Both the position numbers and the translations under genes were made by a program. This document shows positions 6,900 to 15,200 of a DNA stretch of 64,000 bases, piece after piece. This DNA is from an uncultured Bacteroidales bacterium. Its GTDB lineage: Bacteria; Bacteroidota; Bacteroidia; Bacteroidales; F082. How positions within the stretch are numbered: the first letter of the stretch is position 1; every line of letters starts with the position of its first letter. The DNA is taken from NCBI GenBank assembly GCA_900318265.1, contig ONKA01000001.1, positions 62,001-126,000 on the forward strand. Reading direction: 5' to 3'. Under the pieces are notes generated by a model that saw only the letters and a list, made by a program, of their open reading frames with translations, searched no databases and was not told where the DNA came from.

Positions 6900-9734
6900 T
6901 TACTTGTTTTCCTTGATGAATTTCACGGCGCGATGGTTGTCGATGCGCATCAGGTAGTAGCCTGTGGGCAGGTCGCTGATGTTGATTTCGGAGTCGCCTT
7001 CCAGGGTCGTGGTCATGACCAGCATGCCGAAAGCATTGTAAATTTGGATCTCATGCTCGCCTTCCAGACCTTCAATGTGGATCTTGTCGTTTGCTGGGTT
7101 GGGGTAGAGGTTGATGGTCTCAAAGCCATCCTCATCCACGCCTGTGCCTTCGAAGAAGGCGGCCAGCACGATGTCGTGGTCGACCAAGACTTCCTTGGGG
7201 TTGTCGGTGGTGCCGTCGCCCCATTTCTTGAAGTAGAAGCCGTCGGCGGGGATGGCAGCAATCGAAGCGATGGCGCCAGCCTGATAGGTGCCTGCACCGA
7301 GGATGAAGCCTTCGCTTTCGTCATAATACACGGTCACGGTGTAGGTCTCGACGGGGTCTTGTGAGAACGAGGCGATGTATTCGGCGGCGCCCGTGACGAT
7401 GATGGTGCGCGGGTTGTTCATGTCGCCGTCCTGCCAGCCCGAGAAGTAGTAGCCGGGGCGAGGTACGGCACCGATGGAAACCTCTTGATTGAGCTGGTAT
7501 TGACCGCTACCGTAGGTGGAGCCTTGCAGCGGGTTCTCGGGTCTCACCGTGATGAGGTAAGTCTCCACAGCAGTGAAGATAGCCATGAATGTCATGTCTT
7601 GTGTGACGGTGACGCTACGTGGGTTGTCGGTGTTGCCATCGTCCCAACTCGTGAAGACGGCGCCCGAGAAAGGTCTCGCTTCGATGTCAATGCTGGTGCC
7701 GCTGGGGTAGGTGCCGCTGCCAGTAACGGAGCCCAACAACGTATCGTTAGCCACCACGGTGATGGTGTATTGCGGTGTGCCGTTGAGGTGGAACAGGGCT
7801 TTGTAGTTGGCGTTGCTGGTCACGGTGACGTTACGCGGATTGCTGGCGATGCCGTCGCTCCAGCAGAGGAAGATGTAGTTCTCGTTGGGCGTGGCCGTCA
7901 GCGTGGCGGTGCTGCCGTAGTCGTAGGTGCCTGCACCGGTCACCGTGCCGCCTTCCACAGGATCGCATTCGGTGGTGATTTCATATTGCAGCGGGGTGAA
8001 TACGGCGGTGTAGGTGGCGTTGCCTTCGACAAAGACGCTACGCGGGTTGGTGATGTTACCGTCGTTCCATTGGGTGAAGGTATAACCCGTGTTGCTGTGG
8101 GCCGTCAGGTGTATCGTGGTGCCATAGTCGTAGGTGCCACCGCCATTCACCGTACCAGCGCCTTCGGGGATGACCTCAGTCTTGATGAGGCATTGTTGTA
8201 CGCCAAAAAGGCCGAGGTAGCGAAGGTCATCCGTGACGATGATGGTACGCGGGTTGTCGGTGTTGCCGTCGTCCCAGCCGTTGAATTGGAAACCGAGGTA
8301 GGCCGTTGCCGAAATCTGTATGGTGTCGCCATAATAATAGGTGCCGCCGCCTGCCACCGTGCCCCAGCCGGGATGGTCGCTCTCGACGGTGATGGTGTAT
8401 TGGCGTGGGCTGAACATGGCGATGAATGTGCTGTCTTGGGTGACGACGACCTCGCGCGGGTTGTCGGTGACGCTGTCGGTCCATCTTTCAAAGATGAAGC
8501 CGGGGTTGGCGACGGCCTCAAGGGTGATGGTGTCGCCGTAAGGGTAATTGCCACCTCCTGTCACCGTGCCCGAATTGAGCGGAATGACCGCGGTCTCGAT
8601 GGTGTAATTGAAACGGTTGAAATGTGCAATGAAGGTGGTGTCTTGTGTGATGATGATGTCGCGCGGGTTGGTGACGATGCCGTCGTTCCAGAAGAGGAAT
8701 TCGCAGCCCATGTCGGGGATGGCCTCGATGGTGGCCGTGTCACCATAATGGTAGATGCCTCCTCCGGTGACGGTGCCGCCGCCGATGCTGTCGACCTCGA
8801 CGGTGAGGGTGTACTCGGGTTGCGGTGGGGCAGGTTTCACAATGAGGTCGGAGATGATGCATTCTTCGGGCTGATAGAGGACTTCGCCGTCTTTATAAAC
8901 CGTTTGTGCATCTGTATAATAGACTCCGCTCTCGTTGACGACCAAATTGCTGATTCCAGAGAGTTCAGGCAGGTCGAAGAGTACCTCGCCGTCTTGCCAA
9001 ATATAGACAATGATATCCGTCAAGGAAATCCCTGTCCAATAGAGGCTGCCTTCAAATGCTGCGATGTGTCCGAAGTTGGCGTTTTCCAATTGGTAGATGA
9101 TGGAGTCGTTTTGCCAAATGACACCGTAGGTAAGGGAGTCGTTTTCAACCATGAATCCCGCTGCATAGAGGTTGTCGCCATCGAAGCAGATGCTTTGAAT
9201 GCTCGAAGTGCTATCGGCCATCCAAAGCAGCAAGTCGTTTTTCCAGATGCTGGCATGGTAGAGGGAGTCGCTATTGAAGGAGATGGCACCGCCTGCATAA
9301 ATGTCGCCCGTCGTTGCGTCGACGGCTAGGCTGTGAATGTGGCACTCGTCTTCGTTGTGGTCGTAGGAATAGAGGAGCTCGCCGTTTTGCCAGATGTTGT
9401 TGAAGCCAGCCACTATCCAGTCGTTGCCGTTGAGGGCGATGTGGTCGAAATAGGTGCCATTGTCGGAGACGAACACGCAAGAGTCGTTCATCCAAACACG
9501 GCCATAGACGCCATCGGAGTTGAAGGCGGATCCGGCTCCATAAACAGTTCCGTCTTCCGCGACTTGTATGCCTCTCAGCTGGATGTCAAGGCTGTCGGTG
9601 AGACTGTAAAGCAGTGTATTGTTTTTCAATACCTTGCCCGTGGTAAAGTGGTTTCCTGCGACATAAACGTCTTGTGCTTGAGCCAGTCCAAGGCAGAGGA
9701 ACAAGGCGGCGAAAAGGGTGGTTATTTTTTTCAT
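6900..9734 (-). CDS. Giant T9SS surface protein: beta-propeller plus eight InlB-like B-repeats
   Basis: This 944-residue protein has a signal peptide (MKKITTLFAALFLCLGLAQA). Residues about 21-310 carry WD/Kelch-like repeats of the type YAGGxx...IWKNxxLLY, suggesting a beta-propeller. Eight tandem units of about 70 residues follow (roughly 312-865), each with the pattern GTVTGGGTYxYGDTxxxxA, then FxxWxDGxxxNPR and a terminal xFxAxF strand: divergent InlB B-repeats, usual in adhesin stalks. A T9SS sorting domain (NLYPNPANDKIHIEG ... YYLMRIDN) ends the protein. The propeller is related to that of the protein at 34239-36074. It is probably a surface adhesin or reporter-binding scaffold; ligand unknown. 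The N-terminal extension in frame (to 9785) is rejected because the signal peptide starts at 9734. Confidence 0.85.
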   Translation of the reverse strand: MKKITTLFAALFLCLGLAQAQDVYVAGNHFTTGKVLKNNTLLYSLTDSLDIQLRGIQVAEDGTVYGAGSAFNSDGVYGRVWMNDSCVFVSDNGTYFDHIALNGNDWIVAGFNNIWQNGELLYSYDHNEDECHIHSLAVDATTGDIYAGGAISFNSDSLYHASIWKNDLLLWMADSTSSIQSICFDGDNLYAAGFMVENDSLTYGVIWQNDSIIYQLENANFGHIAAFEGSLYWTGISLTDIIVYIWQDGEVLFDLPELSGISNLVVNESGVYYTDAQTVYKDGEVLYQPEECIISDLIVKPAPPQPEYTLTVEVDSIGGGTVTGGGIYHYGDTATIEAIPDMGCEFLFWNDGIVTNPRDIIITQDTTFIAHFNRFNYTIETAVIPLNSGTVTGGGNYPYGDTITLEAVANPGFIFERWTDSVTDNPREVVVTQDSTFIAMFSPRQYTITVESDHPGWGTVAGGGTYYYGDTIQISATAYLGFQFNGWDDGNTDNPRTIIVTDDLRYLGLFGVQQCLIKTEVIPEGAGTVNGGGTYDYGTTIHLTAHSNTGYTFTQWNDGNITNPRSVFVEGNATYTAVFTPLQYEITTECDPVEGGTVTGAGTYDYGSTATLTATPNENYIFLCWSDGIASNPRNVTVTSNANYKALFHLNGTPQYTITVVANDTLLGSVTGSGTYPSGTSIDIEARPFSGAVFTSWDDGNTDNPRSVTVTQDMTFMAIFTAVETYLITVRPENPLQGSTYGSGQYQLNQEVSIGAVPRPGYYFSGWQDGDMNNPRTIIVTGAAEYIASFSQDPVETYTVTVYYDESEGFILGAGTYQAGAIASIAAIPADGFYFKKWGDGTTDNPKEVLVDHDIVLAAFFEGTGVDEDGFETINLYPNPANDKIHIEGLEGEHEIQIYNAFGMLVMTTTLEGDSEINISDLPTGYYLMRIDNHRAVKFIKENK

Positions 9735-9824: not shown

Positions 9825-9832
9825 TATCTTTG
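9825..9832 (+). promoter_or_regulatory. -7 element driving the cobalamin-riboswitch operon
   Basis: TATCTTTG matches TAnnTTTG immediately upstream of the riboswitch aptamer, placing the transcription start near 9838-9840. A properly spaced -33 TTTG is not obvious. Confidence 0.6.
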
Positions 9833-9837
9833 CGGCC

Positions 9838-10000
9838 GATAAGCGGTGCCGCGAGGCTCAATAGGGAATCGGGTGCAAATCCCGGACAGTTCCCGCTGCT
9901 GTAAGCTCTTCACGCTGGTCACTATGCCACTGAAAACATTGTTTTTCGGGAAGGCGGCCAGAACAAAGGAGTAAGTCAGAAGACCTGCCGCCTGTCGCTG
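9838..10000 (+). ncRNA. Cobalamin (vitamin B12) riboswitch
   Basis: The region has the conserved features of the adenosylcobalamin aptamer in order: GCCGCGAGGCTCAATAGGGA (P3 region), GGGTGCAAATCCCGGACAG (about 9890-9909), CCCGCTGCTGTAAG (9893-9906 region), GCCACTG (9926-9932), GGGAAGGCGGCC (9948-9959) and AGTCAGAAGACCTGCC (9974-9989). It is on the plus strand, starts just after a promoter -7 element and ends about 115 bases before the first start codon. No U-tailed terminator follows, so control is probably at translation of the first gene, by analogy with other Bacteroidetes cobalamin leaders. In low B12 the downstream surface genes should be expressed. Confidence 0.93.
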
Positions 10001-10114
10001 AAACAAGGCTTTCGGGACAAGAGCTGGCTTTCCTTATATAGATTAAGGTGTACCCTCATCTCCCCAAGCATTTTAATGTAATGGATTGAATGTCAAACCT
10101 AAAATTATATTATT

Positions 10115-11740
10115 ATGCGTAAAAACTTTACCCTTTTATTCCTTATGGGAATCTTTGGTCTGTTTACGACCAACCTGTTTGCACAACAGGACGCTACCAT
10201 TGACCCTGCTGACATCCGCTATTGGATTGGCGAGGGCGAGAATCAAGCTGTCCTTATCGTCAACTGGGCCGAGCCCGACACGGCACTGGCTTGGGGCTAT
10301 CGCTTCGAAGGAGAGACGGTCACGGTGCAAGAGATGATGGACAAGATCACTGAGGTCGACTCCCGTTTGTCCTACACGCCTGGTCCTTGGGGTCTTGGCG
10401 ACATCCTCTTCAACGATGGTGCACTCGAAATGGGCATCACCGCTGGTGGTTACTGGATGTTTAACGTCGATGGCGAGATGGCTCAAGTTGGCTACGACCA
10501 GCAGACCGTCGCCAACGGCAACTATGTGAAATGGGGCGACACGAACTGCGGCACCATGGTGGATCCTGAGACGTGGGCATACGTCTGGGAAGCTCCCGTT
10601 GCGGCTATTTATCCTTTGGCTGACGAGGCCACAATCGAATTCTCTGCCATCCGTTATTGGATTGGTGAGGGCGAAAATGAAGTGGTCTTAGCCGTAAACT
10701 GGAACGAACCCGACACCTGCCTGGCATGGGGCTATCGCTTCAGCGAAGAGAACGTGACCGTGAAGAACGTCATGGATGCCATCAAGGCCGCCGATCCGCG
10801 TTTCGACTATGTCGACATCGGTTGGGGTATAGGCGATATCTATTACACTGAAGGTGACCTCGACCTTGCACTCTACGGGACCTATTGGCTGTATAACGTC
10901 AACGGCAGCATGGCCATGCTCGGCTTCGACCAACAAACGGTCGTGGACGGCGACTTCATCAAGTGGGGCGACGAGTCATGCGGCACCGAGATTGCTCCTT
11001 GGACCTACGTCTGGGAGTCACCGGTGGCTGCCGTTTATACCTACGCCGAAGAAGCCATGATCGATTTCTCCGAAATCCAGTATTGGGTTGGTGAAGGCCA
11101 TAACGAGATTGTCTTTGCCGTCAACTGGAACGAGCCCAACAGATGCCTAGCTTGGGGCTATCGCTTCGAAGAGGAAACCGTGACGGTGAAGGAAGTGATG
11201 GATGCCATCGCTGCCACTGACATCCGTTTCTCATACGTAGCTGGCGAGTGGGGCGTTGAAGACATCATCTTCAATGTTGATTCAGAAGAAACGCACTATG
11301 CCCTTGCTGGCCAATGGTGGCTGTTCAACGTGAACGGCGCAATGGCTTGGTACGGCTATGAGGAGCAGACCCTCCAGGACGGCGATTTCATTAAGTGGGG
11401 CGACGAGTCATGCGCTACTGAGATTGCCGAATGGTCTTACGTCTGGACGCAAGAAGTTGAGCCTGTTTGGATGAACACGGGTGTTATGGAGAACCAAGGC
11501 AACACCTTGAGCATCTATCCTAATCCCGCCGTCAACGAGACCTTCGTGAGTGTCGAAAACGCTGGCATGACCACGATTTCGGTGTACGACATGCAAGGCC
11601 GTATGGTCAGCACGGTAAGCACCGACGTTATGGCGGGTGAACAAGTCCGCATCAGCACCGAGATGCTGAACAGCGGTGTGTATTTCGTCACTGTGAACAA
11701 CGAGGGTGCCGTGCGTACCGCTAAACTCGTGGTGAAATGA
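10115..11740 (+). CDS. T9SS surface protein with three tandem transcobalamin-like repeats (candidate B12-binding protein)
   Basis: This 541-residue protein has a signal peptide (MRKNFTLLFLMGIFGLFTTN). Three repeats of about 140 residues follow (about 27-165, 168-310, 312-455). Each starts with the block I-x-YWVGEGxNE..A-VNWNEPD..LAWGYRF. It continues with V..VMDAI.A.DxRF, a W/G-x-G..DI strand, YW.FNVNG, and ends with QT..DGDFIKWGDESC. The second part of each unit resembles the C-terminal beta domain of transcobalamin/intrinsic factor (DUF4430-like): a helix with DPRF, then YWxF, then DGDxIxW. A T9SS sorting domain ends the protein. It is the first gene behind a cobalamin riboswitch and overlaps the next gene by ATGA. 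B12 binding is an inference from domain pattern plus regulation. Confidence 0.75.
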   Translation: MRKNFTLLFLMGIFGLFTTNLFAQQDATIDPADIRYWIGEGENQAVLIVNWAEPDTALAWGYRFEGETVTVQEMMDKITEVDSRLSYTPGPWGLGDILFNDGALEMGITAGGYWMFNVDGEMAQVGYDQQTVANGNYVKWGDTNCGTMVDPETWAYVWEAPVAAIYPLADEATIEFSAIRYWIGEGENEVVLAVNWNEPDTCLAWGYRFSEENVTVKNVMDAIKAADPRFDYVDIGWGIGDIYYTEGDLDLALYGTYWLYNVNGSMAMLGFDQQTVVDGDFIKWGDESCGTEIAPWTYVWESPVAAVYTYAEEAMIDFSEIQYWVGEGHNEIVFAVNWNEPNRCLAWGYRFEEETVTVKEVMDAIAATDIRFSYVAGEWGVEDIIFNVDSEETHYALAGQWWLFNVNGAMAWYGYEEQTLQDGDFIKWGDESCATEIAEWSYVWTQEVEPVWMNTGVMENQGNTLSIYPNPAVNETFVSVENAGMTTISVYDMQGRMVSTVSTDVMAGEQVRISTEMLNSGVYFVTVNNEGAVRTAKLVVK

Positions 11741-12702
11741 TTAAAAGGATTTCCATCCTGCTGATGGCTTTGGTGCCGACGATGCTTTGGGCGCAGTTTG
11801 CTCCCGAGGCGGGTGTCGCCGGCACCACGGCCATGCATGCCGACTCTTCGGCCTTCGTGGCTTGGGCTACGGGCTGCACTGTCGACCGTGGGCCGCAACA
11901 GATTGACGACCTCAGCTTGGGTCTGGTCAGCTATGGCGCCGATGACGACGCCCTTGGCAAGGCCGACAACATGGTGGTCAGCTTGGGCGATGGTGGCACG
12001 GCAGTGTTGACCTTTGCTTCACCAATCTGCAATGCCCAGGGTCCCGACTTCGCCGTGTTCGAGAATCCCTTCCACAACACGCCGCATTGCTTCTTGGAGT
12101 TGGCTTTTGTGGAGGTGAGCTCCGATGGTGAGAATTATTTCCAATTCCCCGCCGTCACCAACGTGCCTTCCGATGTGCAGATGGGCGGTTTTGGTGTCAT
12201 GGAAGCCTCGCTGATCCATAACTTCGCTGGAAAATACGAAGTGATGTACGGCACGCCTTTCGACCTTGATGAGTTGGAGGATGATGCCAAACTCGATAAA
12301 AGTCACATCACCCATATCCGTTTGGTCGATGTGATTGGCACCATCAACCCGGAATATGCCACCTATGATTCAGAAGGCCATATCGTCAACGACCCGTGGC
12401 CGACCCCGTTCTGGTCGAGCGGCTTCGACTTGGATGCCGTCGGCGTGATCCACGATGCCGCCCATAACGACGTTGCGGAAAACGCAGAGAAGGTCATCAG
12501 CATGTATCCCAACCCAGTGAAGGACTGTCTTACGGTGAAAGTCGAGAACCTGCAATCAGTTGAAGTGTACAATCTGATGGGCCAACAGGTGATGGCTGCG
12601 ACAACGCCAATCATCGACTTCGGAAGCCTGAACCAAGGCATCTATTTCGTCCGTGTCAAGGCTGGCGGGAAGACCGTTACGGAACGTATTGTGAAACAAT
12701 AA
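11737..12702 (+). CDS. T9SS-sorted cell-surface protein of the cobalamin locus
   Basis: This 321-residue protein begins MIKRISILLMALVPTMLWAQ (signal peptide). Residues about 25-235 form one beta-rich domain with the conserved run SLGDGGTAVLTF, GPDFAVFENPF, LELAFVEVSSDGENYFQFP, GGFG, AGKYEVMYGTPFDL, IRLVDVIGTI and DPWPTPFWSSGFDLDAVGV. This family is found in many bacterial surface proteins. A C-terminal T9SS domain follows (MYPNPVKDCLTVKVE ... GIYFVRVKAGG). Its ATG overlaps the stop of the upstream triple-repeat gene (ATGA), so the two are coupled and should both be B12-regulated. Its exact role is unknown; a structural or B12-binding surface component is the simplest reading. Confidence 0.8.
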   Translation: MIKRISILLMALVPTMLWAQFAPEAGVAGTTAMHADSSAFVAWATGCTVDRGPQQIDDLSLGLVSYGADDDALGKADNMVVSLGDGGTAVLTFASPICNAQGPDFAVFENPFHNTPHCFLELAFVEVSSDGENYFQFPAVTNVPSDVQMGGFGVMEASLIHNFAGKYEVMYGTPFDLDELEDDAKLDKSHITHIRLVDVIGTINPEYATYDSEGHIVNDPWPTPFWSSGFDLDAVGVIHDAAHNDVAENAEKVISMYPNPVKDCLTVKVENLQSVEVYNLMGQQVMAATTPIIDFGSLNQGIYFVRVKAGGKTVTERIVKQ

Positions 12703-12712
12703 CAACCCTAAT

Positions 12713-13792
12713 ATGAAAAGACTTAACTTATTCCTGCTGGCTGTCCTGGCCGTCTCGCTGTTCTCCTGCAAGCCGAACCAACCTGAGGATCCGAATGCCT
12801 TTACCGTAGGCTCGGGAGTGTTGTTGCTCAACGAAGGCAATTATCAGTCCTCCAACGCCTCGCTGACGTTTTATGACCCAGTGGCCGACACGGTGGCCAA
12901 CAACCTTTTCTATAAGGTGAACAACGCTCCTCTCGGCGATGTGGCTCAGAGCATGGCCTTGGTCGACGGACAGTTGTATATCGTTGTCAACAACAGCAAC
13001 TACATCTACAAGGTGAATGCCAACACGATGGTGTGCGACACCGCCAAGCCTTTCAAACTCACCGACTTTTATTCGCCTCGTGAAATGCACTTCGTGGCAC
13101 CCAACAAGGCCTATGTCAGTGACTTGATGGGTTCTGGTTTGTGGATCGTCAACCCGGAGGACATGACCCATACGGGCTTTGTCGAGACCGGAAATACCAC
13201 CGAGAAGATGGTGCAAGTAGGCAATGAGCTGTATGTCAGCAATTGGTCCTATTACTATATCAACGCTGCCTCGCACGACAGCTATAATACCGTCCAGGTC
13301 ATCGACGTCAACAACGACGTGATGGTGGCCGAGGTCGAGGTGGGCAAGGAGCCCAATACCATGGTGGTCGACAAGAACGGTCACGTGTGGGTGCTCTGTG
13401 AAGGTCGCTCTTGGGATGCGGCTTATGGCGAACAGCCCTCTTTGTGGGAAATCGACCCGATGTTGAAGACAGCACAGCGCCGCTATGAATTCGACGGCAC
13501 GGCACAGGTCCTCAAGTCCAATCCTGCCGGCGACCAGTTCTATATGATCTATAACAACGAAGTGCGTCGCTTCGACTTGTCAAGCATGGCCTTGTCGGAG
13601 ACCTTCGGCATCACCGCCGAGTCAGGGACTCTGTTCTATAACATGGCCGTGGATCCCAGGACGGGCGACGTCTACGTCACCGACGCGAAGAACTACGTCA
13701 TGAACGGTACCGTGTATCGTTATACCAACGATGGTGTGCTGTTGAACTCGTTTGAGGCAGGCATCATTCCTAGTGCAATGTTGTTTAAATAA
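12713..13792 (+). CDS. BtuG-like beta-propeller lipoprotein
   Basis: This 359-residue lipoprotein has a signal peptide ending in the lipobox LFSC (Cys19). The mature part is a YncE-type propeller with repeated blade motifs such as GQLYIVVNNSNYIYKVNANT, NKAYVSDLMGSGLWIVNPED, NELYVSNWSYYY and GHVWVLCEGRSW. BtuG of gut Bacteroides is a surface-exposed propeller lipoprotein of about this length that captures cobalamin and hands it to BtuB. Position in the riboswitch operon, 10 bp after the preceding gene, supports that role. No BtuB receptor is adjacent or present in this window. The assignment is by architecture and context, not by a verified residue-level match. Confidence 0.75.
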   Translation: MKRLNLFLLAVLAVSLFSCKPNQPEDPNAFTVGSGVLLLNEGNYQSSNASLTFYDPVADTVANNLFYKVNNAPLGDVAQSMALVDGQLYIVVNNSNYIYKVNANTMVCDTAKPFKLTDFYSPREMHFVAPNKAYVSDLMGSGLWIVNPEDMTHTGFVETGNTTEKMVQVGNELYVSNWSYYYINAASHDSYNTVQVIDVNNDVMVAEVEVGKEPNTMVVDKNGHVWVLCEGRSWDAAYGEQPSLWEIDPMLKTAQRRYEFDGTAQVLKSNPAGDQFYMIYNNEVRRFDLSSMALSETFGITAESGTLFYNMAVDPRTGDVYVTDAKNYVMNGTVYRYTNDGVLLNSFEAGIIPSAMLFK

Positions 13793-13812
13793 TTGATATT
13801 CATTTTTGTTTT

Positions 13813-13844
13813 GCGAGGCCTCCGCAAGGAGGTCTCGCGTTTTT
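13813..13844 (+). terminator. Intra-operon terminator-like hairpin
   Basis: An 11-bp stem with one G-U pair (13813-13823 with 13828-13838) and a GCAA tetraloop is followed by GTTTTT (13839-13844). It lies between the BtuG-like gene and the CWC-BtuF pair, so it could end or attenuate the riboswitch transcript before the binding-protein genes. Confidence 0.75.
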
Positions 13845-13848
13845 GACT

Positions 13849-14013
13849 ATGAAAAAGACCTGTCCCCGTTGCGGAAAAGAATTCGAATGCGTGCATTCCA
13901 TCGACTGCTGGTGTGTGAAAGTGCAGCTCAAAGACGCCACCAAAGCCTATTTGAAGGAACACTACAGCGACTGCCTGTGCAAGGAGTGTCTCGAAAAACT
14001 GAATGGCCAATGA
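13849..14013 (+). CDS. Small cysteine-rich CWC protein
   Basis: This 54-residue protein contains eight cysteines in the order CPRCG, FECxxxxxxCWC and CLCKEC, the pattern of the bacterial Cysteine-rich CWC family (short probable metal-binding proteins). It starts at 13849, five bases after the T-run of the terminator-like hairpin, and its TGA overlaps the ATG of the BtuF-like gene (ATGA at 14010-14013). Co-translation with BtuF suggests a shared regulon, but the function of CWC proteins is not established. There is no signal peptide, so it should be cytosolic. Confidence 0.8.
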   Translation: MKKTCPRCGKEFECVHSIDCWCVKVQLKDATKAYLKEHYSDCLCKECLEKLNGQ

Positions 14014-15137
14014 GAAAGCTATGGATCTTGTTACTGGTGGCTCTGACGGCATGTAGGTTCAACCACCAAGTCAAGGAAGAGAAGACCGAGGTTGACAACC
14101 TCATGCGCTATGCGCATAACGTCGTCGTCAGCGAGAAAGACTACGGCTATCTGATGGAAGTGATTTGTCCATGGGATACGACCTTGTCATTAGGCAAGTT
14201 CGCCATGGTCAAGGACACGACGAAGGCCGTCGACACGGACGTGAAAGGCGTCCTTCGCGTTCCCGTGAAGTCCGTGATCTCGTTCTCGGCCACGCAATGG
14301 GCAGTCTTCCTTCGCTTGGGTGAGATCGACCGCGTGAAGGGCATCCTCGAGGGCCGATTTGTCACCGACACCACCATGCGAGCCTTGCTGGCGGAGGAGA
14401 AGGTCTACGACATCGGCACGGAGGCTGCTGCCGACGTGGAGCGGATGATACAGCTGCAGCCCGACGCCTTGTTGTATTCGCCTTATTTCGATGGTAACCA
14501 AGGCGGGCTCAACGTCACGGGTGCCGTGTTGTTCCCCTTTGCCGATTATATGGAGAACACGCCCTTGGGTCGTGCCGAATGGATCCGTGTCATCGGCATC
14601 ATGGCGGGCTGCGAGGACAAGGCCAATGCTTGGTTCGACGACATCGAGCGGCGTTACAACGCCCTCTCGGGGCTCTGCGCCGGGGTGGAGCACCGTCCCA
14701 CGGTGTTTTCCGACCTGGCCTTCAACGGGCAGTGGTACGTGGCAGGTGGTCGCAGCTATATCGCCAAGCTCTTTGCCGATGCCGGTGCCGACTACATCTG
14801 GAAAGACAACCCGTCGACCGCCAGCGTCCCTATGGACGCCGAGAGTATCCTCGCCAAGGCGCAGCATGCCGATTATTGGCGCGTCATCAACTCCAATCCT
14901 TTCCCGATGACCTACGAGTCGTTATCGAAAGAGAGTCCCGTCTATCCGCTTTTCGACGCCTTCAAGAACCATCAAATCATCGTCTGCGACATCCTCTCGA
15001 CGGGCTATTTCGAGCAGTCGCAGTGCGAGCCCGACCTGTTGTTGGCCGACTTCATCCATTTCTTCCATCCCGAGCTGTTGACAGGGGAGTGGGAGGGATA
15101 CCGGACGAGGTATTATCATTTGATGGAGGGAGAATAA
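14010..15137 (+). CDS. ABC transporter substrate-binding lipoprotein, BtuF-like
   Basis: This 375-residue lipoprotein starts MRKLWILLLVALTAC (lipobox ending at Cys15). The fold follows the class III periplasmic binding protein family (iron-siderophore/cobalamin): an N-terminal lobe with VPVKSVISFSATQWAVFLRL and IGTEAAADVERMIQLQPDAL, a long linker helix, and a C-terminal lobe with VFSDLAFNGQWYVAGGRSYIAKLFADAG. Under a B12 riboswitch the likely ligand is cobalamin delivered to BtuCD, which is not in this window. It is coupled to the CWC gene by ATGA. A longer in-frame extension to 13806 overlaps the CWC gene and the hairpin and is rejected. Confidence 0.8.
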   Translation: MRKLWILLLVALTACRFNHQVKEEKTEVDNLMRYAHNVVVSEKDYGYLMEVICPWDTTLSLGKFAMVKDTTKAVDTDVKGVLRVPVKSVISFSATQWAVFLRLGEIDRVKGILEGRFVTDTTMRALLAEEKVYDIGTEAAADVERMIQLQPDALLYSPYFDGNQGGLNVTGAVLFPFADYMENTPLGRAEWIRVIGIMAGCEDKANAWFDDIERRYNALSGLCAGVEHRPTVFSDLAFNGQWYVAGGRSYIAKLFADAGADYIWKDNPSTASVPMDAESILAKAQHADYWRVINSNPFPMTYESLSKESPVYPLFDAFKNHQIIVCDILSTGYFEQSQCEPDLLLADFIHFFHPELLTGEWEGYRTRYYHLMEGE

Positions 15138-15149
15138 AGCATATTTGGG

Positions 15150-15200
15150 GCAAATCTGGTGCAAATCTGGTGCAAATCTGGTGCAAATCTGGTGCAAAAG
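15150..15200 (+). repeat. 11-bp tandem repeat, four copies plus a partial
   Basis: The unit GCAAATCTGGT is repeated exactly four times (15150-15193) and followed by a partial GCAAAAG. It begins 13 bases after the BtuF-like stop codon and ends just before a terminator. It is too short and spacer-free to be CRISPR. Copy number would be expected to vary by slippage. Confidence 0.9.

What the first reader, a model, noticed from the sequence alone, without database searches (positions are those of the whole stretch)
9838..15137. A B12-riboswitch operon built around T9SS-sorted surface proteins, without an adjacent BtuB
Seen directly: a cobalamin aptamer, then a triple-repeat T9SS protein, a second T9SS surface protein, a propeller lipoprotein, a CWC mini-protein and a BtuF-like lipoprotein, all on one strand with overlapping or 10-bp junctions except at one internal hairpin. 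Known: Bacteroides capture B12 with BtuG lipoproteins on BtuB. Inferred: this organism adds two T9SS-delivered surface proteins to that system, giving a cobalamin capture layer outside the receptor. No TonB-dependent receptor or BtuCD gene is present, so the transporter must be encoded elsewhere.
Basis: partly seen in the sequence, partly recalled or inferred. Interest (0 to 1): 0.85.

Follow-up and report, generated by a model that had tools for sequence, protein, structure and literature searches.

The report
T9SS-exported vitamin B12 capture operon

Summary
A cobalamin riboswitch (RF00174, 109.8 bits) at 9827-10006 precedes five same-strand genes: g1 (three DUF4430 domains, the transcobalamin/intrinsic-factor beta-domain family, plus a T9SS tail), g2 (an unnamed 222-aa domain plus a T9SS tail), g3 (BtuG), g4 (54-aa CWC protein), g5 (BtuF-type lipoprotein). 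The transporter is elsewhere in the genome: BtuB on another contig, the only FecCD permease with an ATPase about 85 kb away. The T9SS protein SprA is present. Another riboswitch of this genome precedes genes of the B12-binding DUF4465 family with T9SS tails. The design is not peculiar to this organism. g2 has at least 548 relatives; of the best 80 loci, 69 hold a riboswitch motif, BtuB or BtuG. Three of six other-family regions read RS-g1-g2-BtuB-BtuG, so 'no adjacent BtuB' is a trait of this genus. Most likely it is a B12-repressed, T9SS-delivered capture tier feeding BtuG-BtuB. Binding, surface location and hand-over are inferred; nothing was measured. Four full-text searches found no such tier described.

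The parts
9827..10006 (+). Cobalamin riboswitch aptamer (RF00174)
   Evidence: 109.8 bits, E 1.3e-26, full model; same element upstream of the operon in 18 of 20 fetched relatives
10007..10114 (+). Leader between aptamer and g1 (108 bases); expression platform not resolved
   Evidence: Stretch 9990-10117 does not fold unusually well, z -1.4
10115..11740 (+). g1: signal peptide, three DUF4430 (transcobalamin-beta-type) domains, T9SS type A sorting domain; 541 aa
   Evidence: DUF4430 3.2e-17 in three stretches, Por_Secre_tail 4.8e-14; TIGR04183 2.9e-15; model resembles transcobalamin beta domain
11737..12702 (+). g2: signal peptide, unnamed 222-aa domain, T9SS type A sorting domain; 321 aa
   Evidence: Por_Secre_tail 2.9e-12; no Pfam match of the N-terminal domain; at least 548 relatives in species genomes
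12713..13792 (+). g3: BtuG, DUF5074 propeller lipoprotein; 359 aa
   Evidence: DUF5074 3.8e-22; phmmer 6.5e-61 to 8p97_B, the BtuG chain of a BtuB-BtuG structure
13812..13839 (+). Terminator-like hairpin between g3 and g4
   Evidence: 12-pair stem, then TTTTT; z -5.3
13849..14013 (+). g4: Cys_rich_CWC mini-protein, 54 aa
   Evidence: PF14375 5.7e-13; found in 11 of 14 same-genus regions
14010..15137 (+). g5: BtuF-type substrate-binding lipoprotein, 375 aa
   Evidence: Peripla_BP_2 1.2e-21; the only PF01497 match in the genome

Best explanation
This is a B12-repressed operon for cobamide acquisition. When B12 is scarce the riboswitch lets the cell make two T9SS cargo proteins (g1, g2), the BtuG lid (g3) and the carrier BtuF (g5). 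g1 and g2 are exported through the T9SS translocon and stay on the outer surface. g1, an array of transcobalamin-beta-type domains, captures cobamide; g2 is the constant partner, either a second binder or a docking factor. Cobamide passes to BtuG on BtuB (another contig), then through BtuF to the single BtuCD-type transporter (same contig, about 85 kb away). Shown here: riboswitch, gene families, T9SS tails and SprA, transporter genes elsewhere, and conserved linkage of g1/g2 with BtuB and BtuG. Inferred: switching by B12, surface retention, ligand binding and hand-over.
For: Riboswitch, present in 18 of 20 relatives' operon regions. g1 is DUF4430 and its model resembles human transcobalamin beta domain, haptocorrin and intrinsic factor (Foldseek probability 0.97-1.00, TM 0.60 on 5no0 and 5np4). 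g3 is BtuG. BtuB on C17 matches solved Bacteroides BtuB at 1.2e-67. One Peripla_BP_2 and one FecCD in the genome. T9SS tails on g1 and g2 and SprA. In other families RS-g1-g2-BtuB-BtuG (L101, L102, L105) and RS-[g2+DUF4465]-BtuB-BtuG (L103). Of the best 80 named g2 loci, 69 have a riboswitch motif, BtuB or BtuG. Fusions of g2 with DUF4465 (L103, L151, L174) or with g1-type domains (L104, L157, L178).
Against: No binding, expression or localisation data. DUF4430 covers only about 30 of 72 positions per repeat; the g1 fold hits have E of 3e-3 or more; a repeat profile found no transcobalamin in the PDB. No sequence or fold result shows g2 to be a B12 binder. In this genome BtuB has no riboswitch within the 19.9 kb fetched. 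No MetH activation domain was found in the 89%-complete genome, so what B12 is used for is not established. 9 of 80 g2 loci show no B12 neighbour; 4 of these are loci under 7 kb.
Confidence: 0.75

Rival explanations
1. g1 (or its DUF4465 or propeller substitute) binds B12, but g2 does not: g2 is a T9SS-delivered scaffold or docking partner for BtuB-BtuG, or has a vesicle-related role like BtuL of B. thetaiotaomicron.
For: g2 is the constant member while the binder type changes. BtuL, also encoded in a B12 operon, showed no cobalamin binding and promotes vesicle release (PMC12751083; abstract and passages). g2's fold hits include discoidin and CBM32 domains, which often bind other ligands.
Against: g2's best fold hit is the B12-binding BtuG1 chain. 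Fusion with proven binders is compatible with either role.
Confidence: 0.4
2. g1 and g2 bind something other than free cobamide, such as a protein-bound form of B12 or a surface glycan that positions the uptake complex, and do not feed BtuG directly.
For: Jelly-roll/discoidin-like fold of g2. The top PDB fold hit of g1 is 3u7z, annotated as a putative metal-binding protein. In L097, L098 and L099 the riboswitch leads g1-g2-CWC with no BtuG or BtuF next to it.
Against: Next-best fold hits of g1 include transcobalamin, haptocorrin and intrinsic factor; DUF4465 takes the same place in other operons and is a proven B12-binding family (PMC13398666).
Confidence: 0.15
3. The T9SS genes are passengers that happen to lie behind a riboswitch serving BtuG and BtuF.
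For: T9SS cargo genes are common around here: the neighbour at 6900-9728 on the other strand is one too.
Against: Linkage kept across families and orders, repeated fusions, and riboswitch-led g1-g2-CWC units without BtuG/BtuF.
Confidence: 0.03

Closest known systems
BtuB-BtuG uptake systems of Bacteroides thetaiotaomicron with accessory surface lipoproteins BtuH, BtuJ, BtuK, BtuL
   Same: Cobalamin riboswitch control, BtuG, BtuB and BtuF-BtuCD type transporter, extra surface proteins in the operon (PMC12751083, PMC8941943, PMC10404256)
   Different: The extra proteins here carry T9SS tails, not lipoprotein signals; their domains are DUF4430 and an unnamed domain; BtuB is not in the operon in this genus
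Transcobalamin-like SLBB/DUF4430 surface proteins of Gram-positive bacteria and the beta domain of human transcobalamin and intrinsic factor
   Same: DUF4430 domain and fold, exported protein, predicted B12 scavenging (PMC1796856)
   Different: No alpha/alpha toroid partner seen by Pfam; one to four tandem copies; T9SS delivery; linked to BtuB-BtuG and a riboswitch, not CbiO/CbiQ
DUF4465 (BtuJ) B12-binding proteins
   Same: Occupy the place next to g2 in other genomes and are themselves T9SS-tailed there and in this genome
   Different: g1 and g2 do not match DUF4465
BtuH domain (fused in BtuG1 of B. thetaiotaomicron, 8blw)
   Same: 8blw_B, which contains a BtuH domain, is g2's best Foldseek hit, E 1.7e-4
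   Different: TM only 0.40 and rmsd 11.8; aligned part not reported; BtuH2 itself (7BIZ) is not among the 50 rows listed; no sequence match to PDB chains of BtuH

Membership tests
Cobalamin riboswitch RF00174 | Score above the Rfam gathering threshold over the whole model | tested here: met
   109.8 against 31.5 bits, model 1-189
Cobalamin riboswitch RF00174 | Binds cobalamin and changes expression | not testable with these tools
   Needs transcripts or in-line probing
T9SS type A cargo (g1, g2) | C-terminal sorting domain over curated cut-off | tested here: met
   TIGR04183 56.0 and 51.3 bits against 23; PF18962 52.8 and 47.1 against 27
T9SS type A cargo (g1, g2) | T9SS translocon in the same genome | tested here: met
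   SprA_N 4.0e-164; other T9SS components not searched
DUF4430 / transcobalamin beta domain (g1) | Pfam score over cut-off | tested here: met
   63.2 bits for the whole protein against 23.8; each repeat 25.4-30.3 bits over about 30 of 72 positions
DUF4430 / transcobalamin beta domain (g1) | Fold of the beta domain | tested here: inconclusive
   TM 0.60 and probability 1.00 to 5no0 and 5np4 but E 4e-3 and 9e-3; no hit at E 0.001 or better; repeat profile found no transcobalamin by sequence
DUF4430 / transcobalamin beta domain (g1) | Cobalamin-contacting residues | not tested
   No superposition was made
BtuG (g3) | DUF5074 propeller related to solved BtuG, lipoprotein signal | tested here: met
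   DUF5074 79.3 bits against 27.2; 6.5e-61 to 8p97_B; lipobox LFSC read by eye
BtuF (g5) | Peripla_BP_2 domain | tested here: met
   77.6 bits against 27.5; sole member in the genome
BtuF (g5) | Cobalamin as the ligand | not testable with these tools
   No solved relative at E 0.01; assignment by operon and elimination
DUF4465 / BtuJ (considered for g2) | Pfam match | tested here: not met
   0 of 26 g2 domains match DUF4465 at E up to 1
BtuH (considered for g2) | Sequence or fold relationship to solved BtuH | tested here: inconclusive
   No sequence hit; best fold hit is 8blw_B, weak and of unknown range
LIC_13355 lipoprotein NF033170 (considered for g2) | Score over NCBIfam cut-off | tested here: not met
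   24.9 bits against 120 for the window's g2
Bacteroides-type BtuB-BtuG locus | BtuB gene in the same operon | tested here: not met
   BtuB candidate lies on C17, the operon on C15; adjacent in L101, L102, L103 and L105

The most novel reading that the evidence does not exclude
Bacteroidota with T9SS use a separate tier of B12 capture: secreted, surface-retained proteins whose binding module is interchangeable (tandem transcobalamin-beta domains, DUF4465 jelly rolls or BtuG-like propellers), paired with one constant, so far unnamed family (g2) that is itself a new B12-binding or B12-transfer protein docking to BtuG-BtuB.
Probability: 0.5. Interest if true: 0.75.

Novelty: new variant of a known kind. 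Interest (0 to 1): 0.62.

Why it matters
Competition for B12 is known mainly from gut Bacteroides, where the accessory capture proteins described are lipoproteins. This points to a second delivery route, T9SS, in lineages named in the scan as Bacteroidales, Flavobacteriales and Chitinophagales. It places a domain of the human B12-carrier family on a bacterial surface protein under a B12 riboswitch, and gives an unnamed protein family with hundreds of members a directly testable function.

Tried and rejected
Passenger genes: rejected, because linkage is kept across families and fusions recur. g2 as DUF4465/BtuJ: rejected. g2 as BtuH: no sequence support; fold result weak. g1 repeat profile against the PDB: no transcobalamin hit, so that assignment rests on Pfam and fold. 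T9SS presence as a contrast for g2: uninformative, SprA_N matches in 95 of 100 relatives. DUF4430 as Bacteroides BtuK: not testable here; DUF4430 did not ring in the Bacteroides ihuae control. A covariance model of my own was not built: alignment A3 held L004 and L005 on the wrong strand. I used a motif pattern instead; it found 18 of 18 loci known from cmscan and only the 4 known sites in 160 kb of other sequence. The pattern was written after seeing the alignment, so this is no independent test.

Limits: the 80 named loci are the best-scoring of 548, not a random sample, and some are the same genomes as my G-handle relatives. Riboswitch counts there come from the motif pattern anywhere on the + strand of the locus. 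Neighbour labels are blastp hits (E 1e-4) to this genome's proteins and may include other TonB receptors or propellers. The ORF caller drops overlapping frames: g1 of L091 and L094 is absent but was found. 'Relatives' tallies include the window's own genome. I tested one of 11 PF00593 matches against solved BtuB; a search with that protein found only itself in this genome.
Full report
OBSERVATION. The aptamer is RF00174 at 9827-10006 (109.8 bits, E 1.3e-26). Five same-strand genes follow: g1 10115-11740, g2 11737-12702, g3 12713-13792, g4 13849-14013, g5 14010-15137. g1/g2 and g4/g5 overlap by four bases, and g2/g3 are 10 bases apart. A strong hairpin with a T run (13812-13839, z -5.3) separates g3 from g4, although the terminator scan as a whole gave 8 sites against 5.3 +/- 2.7 in shuffles. 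How the switch acts on expression was not resolved: the leader 9990-10117 folds with z -1.4.

GENE IDENTITIES. g1 has three DUF4430 stretches and a T9SS type A sorting domain; its repeats are 49-61% identical. Each repeat passes the DUF4430 cut-off alone, but over only about 30 of 72 positions. The AlphaFold2 model (mean pLDDT 88) matches 3u7z (Ruminococcus gnavus, annotated as putative metal-binding) first, then human transcobalamin beta domain (5no0, 5np4), haptocorrin and intrinsic factor, with probabilities of 0.97-1.00 and TM 0.60 on the beta-domain entries, but no E value below 3e-3; a poor USP7 match (probability 0.25) ranks second. A profile of the repeats found no transcobalamin in the PDB by sequence. 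g2 has a T9SS tail and a 222-residue domain without a Pfam match and without a PDB relative by sequence. Its model is confident (pLDDT 89, pTM 0.90). The best fold hit is 8blw_B, BtuG1 of B. thetaiotaomicron (E 1.7e-4, TM 0.40, rmsd 11.8), followed by discoidin and CBM32 domains. BtuG1 is a propeller plus a BtuH domain (PMC10404256, passages). Single-domain BtuG entries are not among the 50 rows, which suggests that the BtuH part is matched; but BtuH2 (7BIZ) is not among them either, and the tool gives no range. g3 is BtuG (6.5e-61 to 8p97_B). g4 is Cys_rich_CWC and g5 Peripla_BP_2; g5 matched no solved chain at E 0.01.

THE REST OF THE SYSTEM. The genome has 2.98 Mb in 50 contigs, 89% complete. 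There are 11 PF00593 matches; one, on C17 (L084:12818-14749), matches solved Bacteroides BtuB at 1.2e-67, and a search with it found only itself in this genome. No RF00174 match lies in the 19.9 kb around it. The one FecCD permease is at C15:163212-164159 with an ABC ATPase beside it at about C15:162221-162985; the one Peripla_BP_2 protein is g5. By elimination I take these as BtuC, BtuD and BtuF. SprA is present. CbiC was not found, as expected of an auxotroph, and neither was the MetH activation domain; in an incomplete genome neither absence is proof, and the use of B12 here was not established.

B12 REGULON. Four other RF00174 matches were found. They lie about 95-140 bases before NrdD (C18), an acetyl-CoA hydrolase/transferase (C35), a 1929-residue fn3/MAM protein with a marginal T9SS tail (27.4 bits against 27; C35) and a DUF4465 gene group (C35). 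In that group a 1060-residue ORF carries DUF4465 and a T9SS tail, and a 271-residue DUF4465 ORF is followed in another frame by a 289-residue ORF with a T9SS tail. DUF4465 proteins are shown B12 binders with a conserved TPAY loop (PMC13398666; abstract, Results, Discussion read); both DUF4465 ORFs contain TPAYF. So three riboswitch-led units of this genome hold T9SS-tailed proteins.

CONSERVATION. In 100 genomes (own included), g2 has matches in 60 and g1 in 53. I fetched 20 operon regions. A riboswitch is present in 18; the exceptions are L095, where the contig ends, and L100, where g2 stands without known partners. Of the 14 same-genus regions, 10 include BtuG and BtuF, while L095, L097, L098 and L099 show g1-g2-CWC only; CWC was detected in 11 of 14 (with g1 of L091 and L094). 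Of the 6 other-family regions, three read RS-g1-g2-BtuB-BtuG (L101, L102, L105; g1 matches there are partial), one RS-[g2+DUF4465+T9SS]-BtuB-BtuG (L103), one RS-BtuG-[g1+g2] (L104), and one g2 alone (L100). The BtuB query matches in 92 of 100 genomes, 55 of 60 in the genus, though the weakest distant matches may be other receptors. Of 30 same-genus BtuB loci (own included), one has the riboswitch motif beside BtuB (L207). g1-type repeats per protein, by motif: 1 in 5, 2 in 30, 3 in 5, 4 in 1 of 41 proteins.

WIDER VIEW. Of the 80: riboswitch motif 52, BtuG 50, BtuB 48, g1-type 25, DUF4465 24, BtuF 14; riboswitch, BtuB or BtuG in 69; any of the six in 71; none in 9, of which 4 are loci under 7 kb. 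A T9SS tail on g2 was seen by BLAST in 56 of 80; of the other 24, two had no g2 ORF called, and the printed tails of the rest mostly look like T9SS domains to the eye. Fusions: g2 with DUF4465 in L103, L151 and L174; g2 with g1-type domains in L104, L157 and L178. A third partner, a T9SS-tailed protein of 422-445 residues, lies upstream of g2 in 11 of the 80 loci; its members are 29-76% identical, one (L153) hits BtuG by BLAST, and several align weakly with the DUF5074+T9SS protein of L175. I take it to be a BtuG-like propeller; a phmmer search of one member found only T9SS domains and weak kelch matches.

MECHANISM. I favour a B12-repressed, T9SS-delivered capture tier feeding BtuG on BtuB. 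In B. thetaiotaomicron BtuG is a lid on BtuB, and surface binders such as BtuH were proposed to help load it (PMC10404256, passages); reporter assays show repression of such operons by B12 (PMC12751083, Results part 1 of 3). Here g1, or a DUF4465 or propeller substitute, would be the binder and g2 the constant partner. That g2 itself binds cobamide is about even odds.

NOVELTY. Transcobalamin-like domains in bacterial surface proteins and a B12-scavenging role were predicted in 2007, with CbiO/CbiQ operons (PMC1796856; abstract, section 7 part 1, passages). Accessory B12 proteins of B. thetaiotaomicron are lipoproteins but for btuX (PMC12751083), and DUF4465 proteins were described as over 70% lipoproteins, the rest with periplasmic targeting signals (PMC13398666). 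Searches of the held library for type IX secretion + cobalamin riboswitch, T9SS + vitamin B12 + BtuB, transcobalamin + Bacteroidetes + T9SS, and type IX secretion + BtuG returned 1, 3, 0 and 1 papers. PMC9723704 and PMC12578637 were seen in passages and describe no T9SS-delivered B12 protein; two others were seen as listings only. Subscription papers and preprints are not covered. I file this as a new variant of BtuB-BtuG uptake.

Noticed in passing
window 15146-15198: Tandem array of 4.8 copies of TGGTGCAAATC just after g5; GGTGCAAATC occurs four times in the window: three here and once inside the riboswitch aptamer at 9872. Possibly chance.
   Followed up: partly
g2 domain, window 11791-12456: 45 of 50 g2 homologues show weak similarity to the LIC_13355 lipoprotein family (best 5.6e-8, far below its cut-off), hinting at a wider superfamily.
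   Followed up: no
window 13849-14013 and L097, L098, L099: The 54-aa CWC mini-gene stays with g1-g2 even where BtuG and BtuF are absent, and also lies next to g2 in L141; its role is unknown.
   Followed up: partly
window 6900-9728 (-): Divergent T9SS-tailed protein with eight InlB-like repeats next to the riboswitch; T9SS-tailed ORFs of 958-1116 aa lie in the same position in several same-genus loci, e.g. L089, L107, L110, L111, L114.
   Followed up: no
L006:8903-15012 (C35): Cobalamin riboswitch before a 1929-residue fn3/MAM protein with a marginal T9SS tail; a possible further B12-regulated surface protein.
   Followed up: no
L006:6599-8209 (C35): Cobalamin riboswitch before an acetyl-CoA hydrolase/transferase family gene followed by a MarC-family gene.
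   Followed up: no
L007:9722-11428 (C35): A DUF4465 ORF is followed by a T9SS-tail ORF in a different frame; assembly error or real split not checked.
   Followed up: no
L207: One same-genus genome (G059) has a cobalamin riboswitch motif beside its separate BtuB gene, while the other 29 BtuB loci examined have none.
   Followed up: partly
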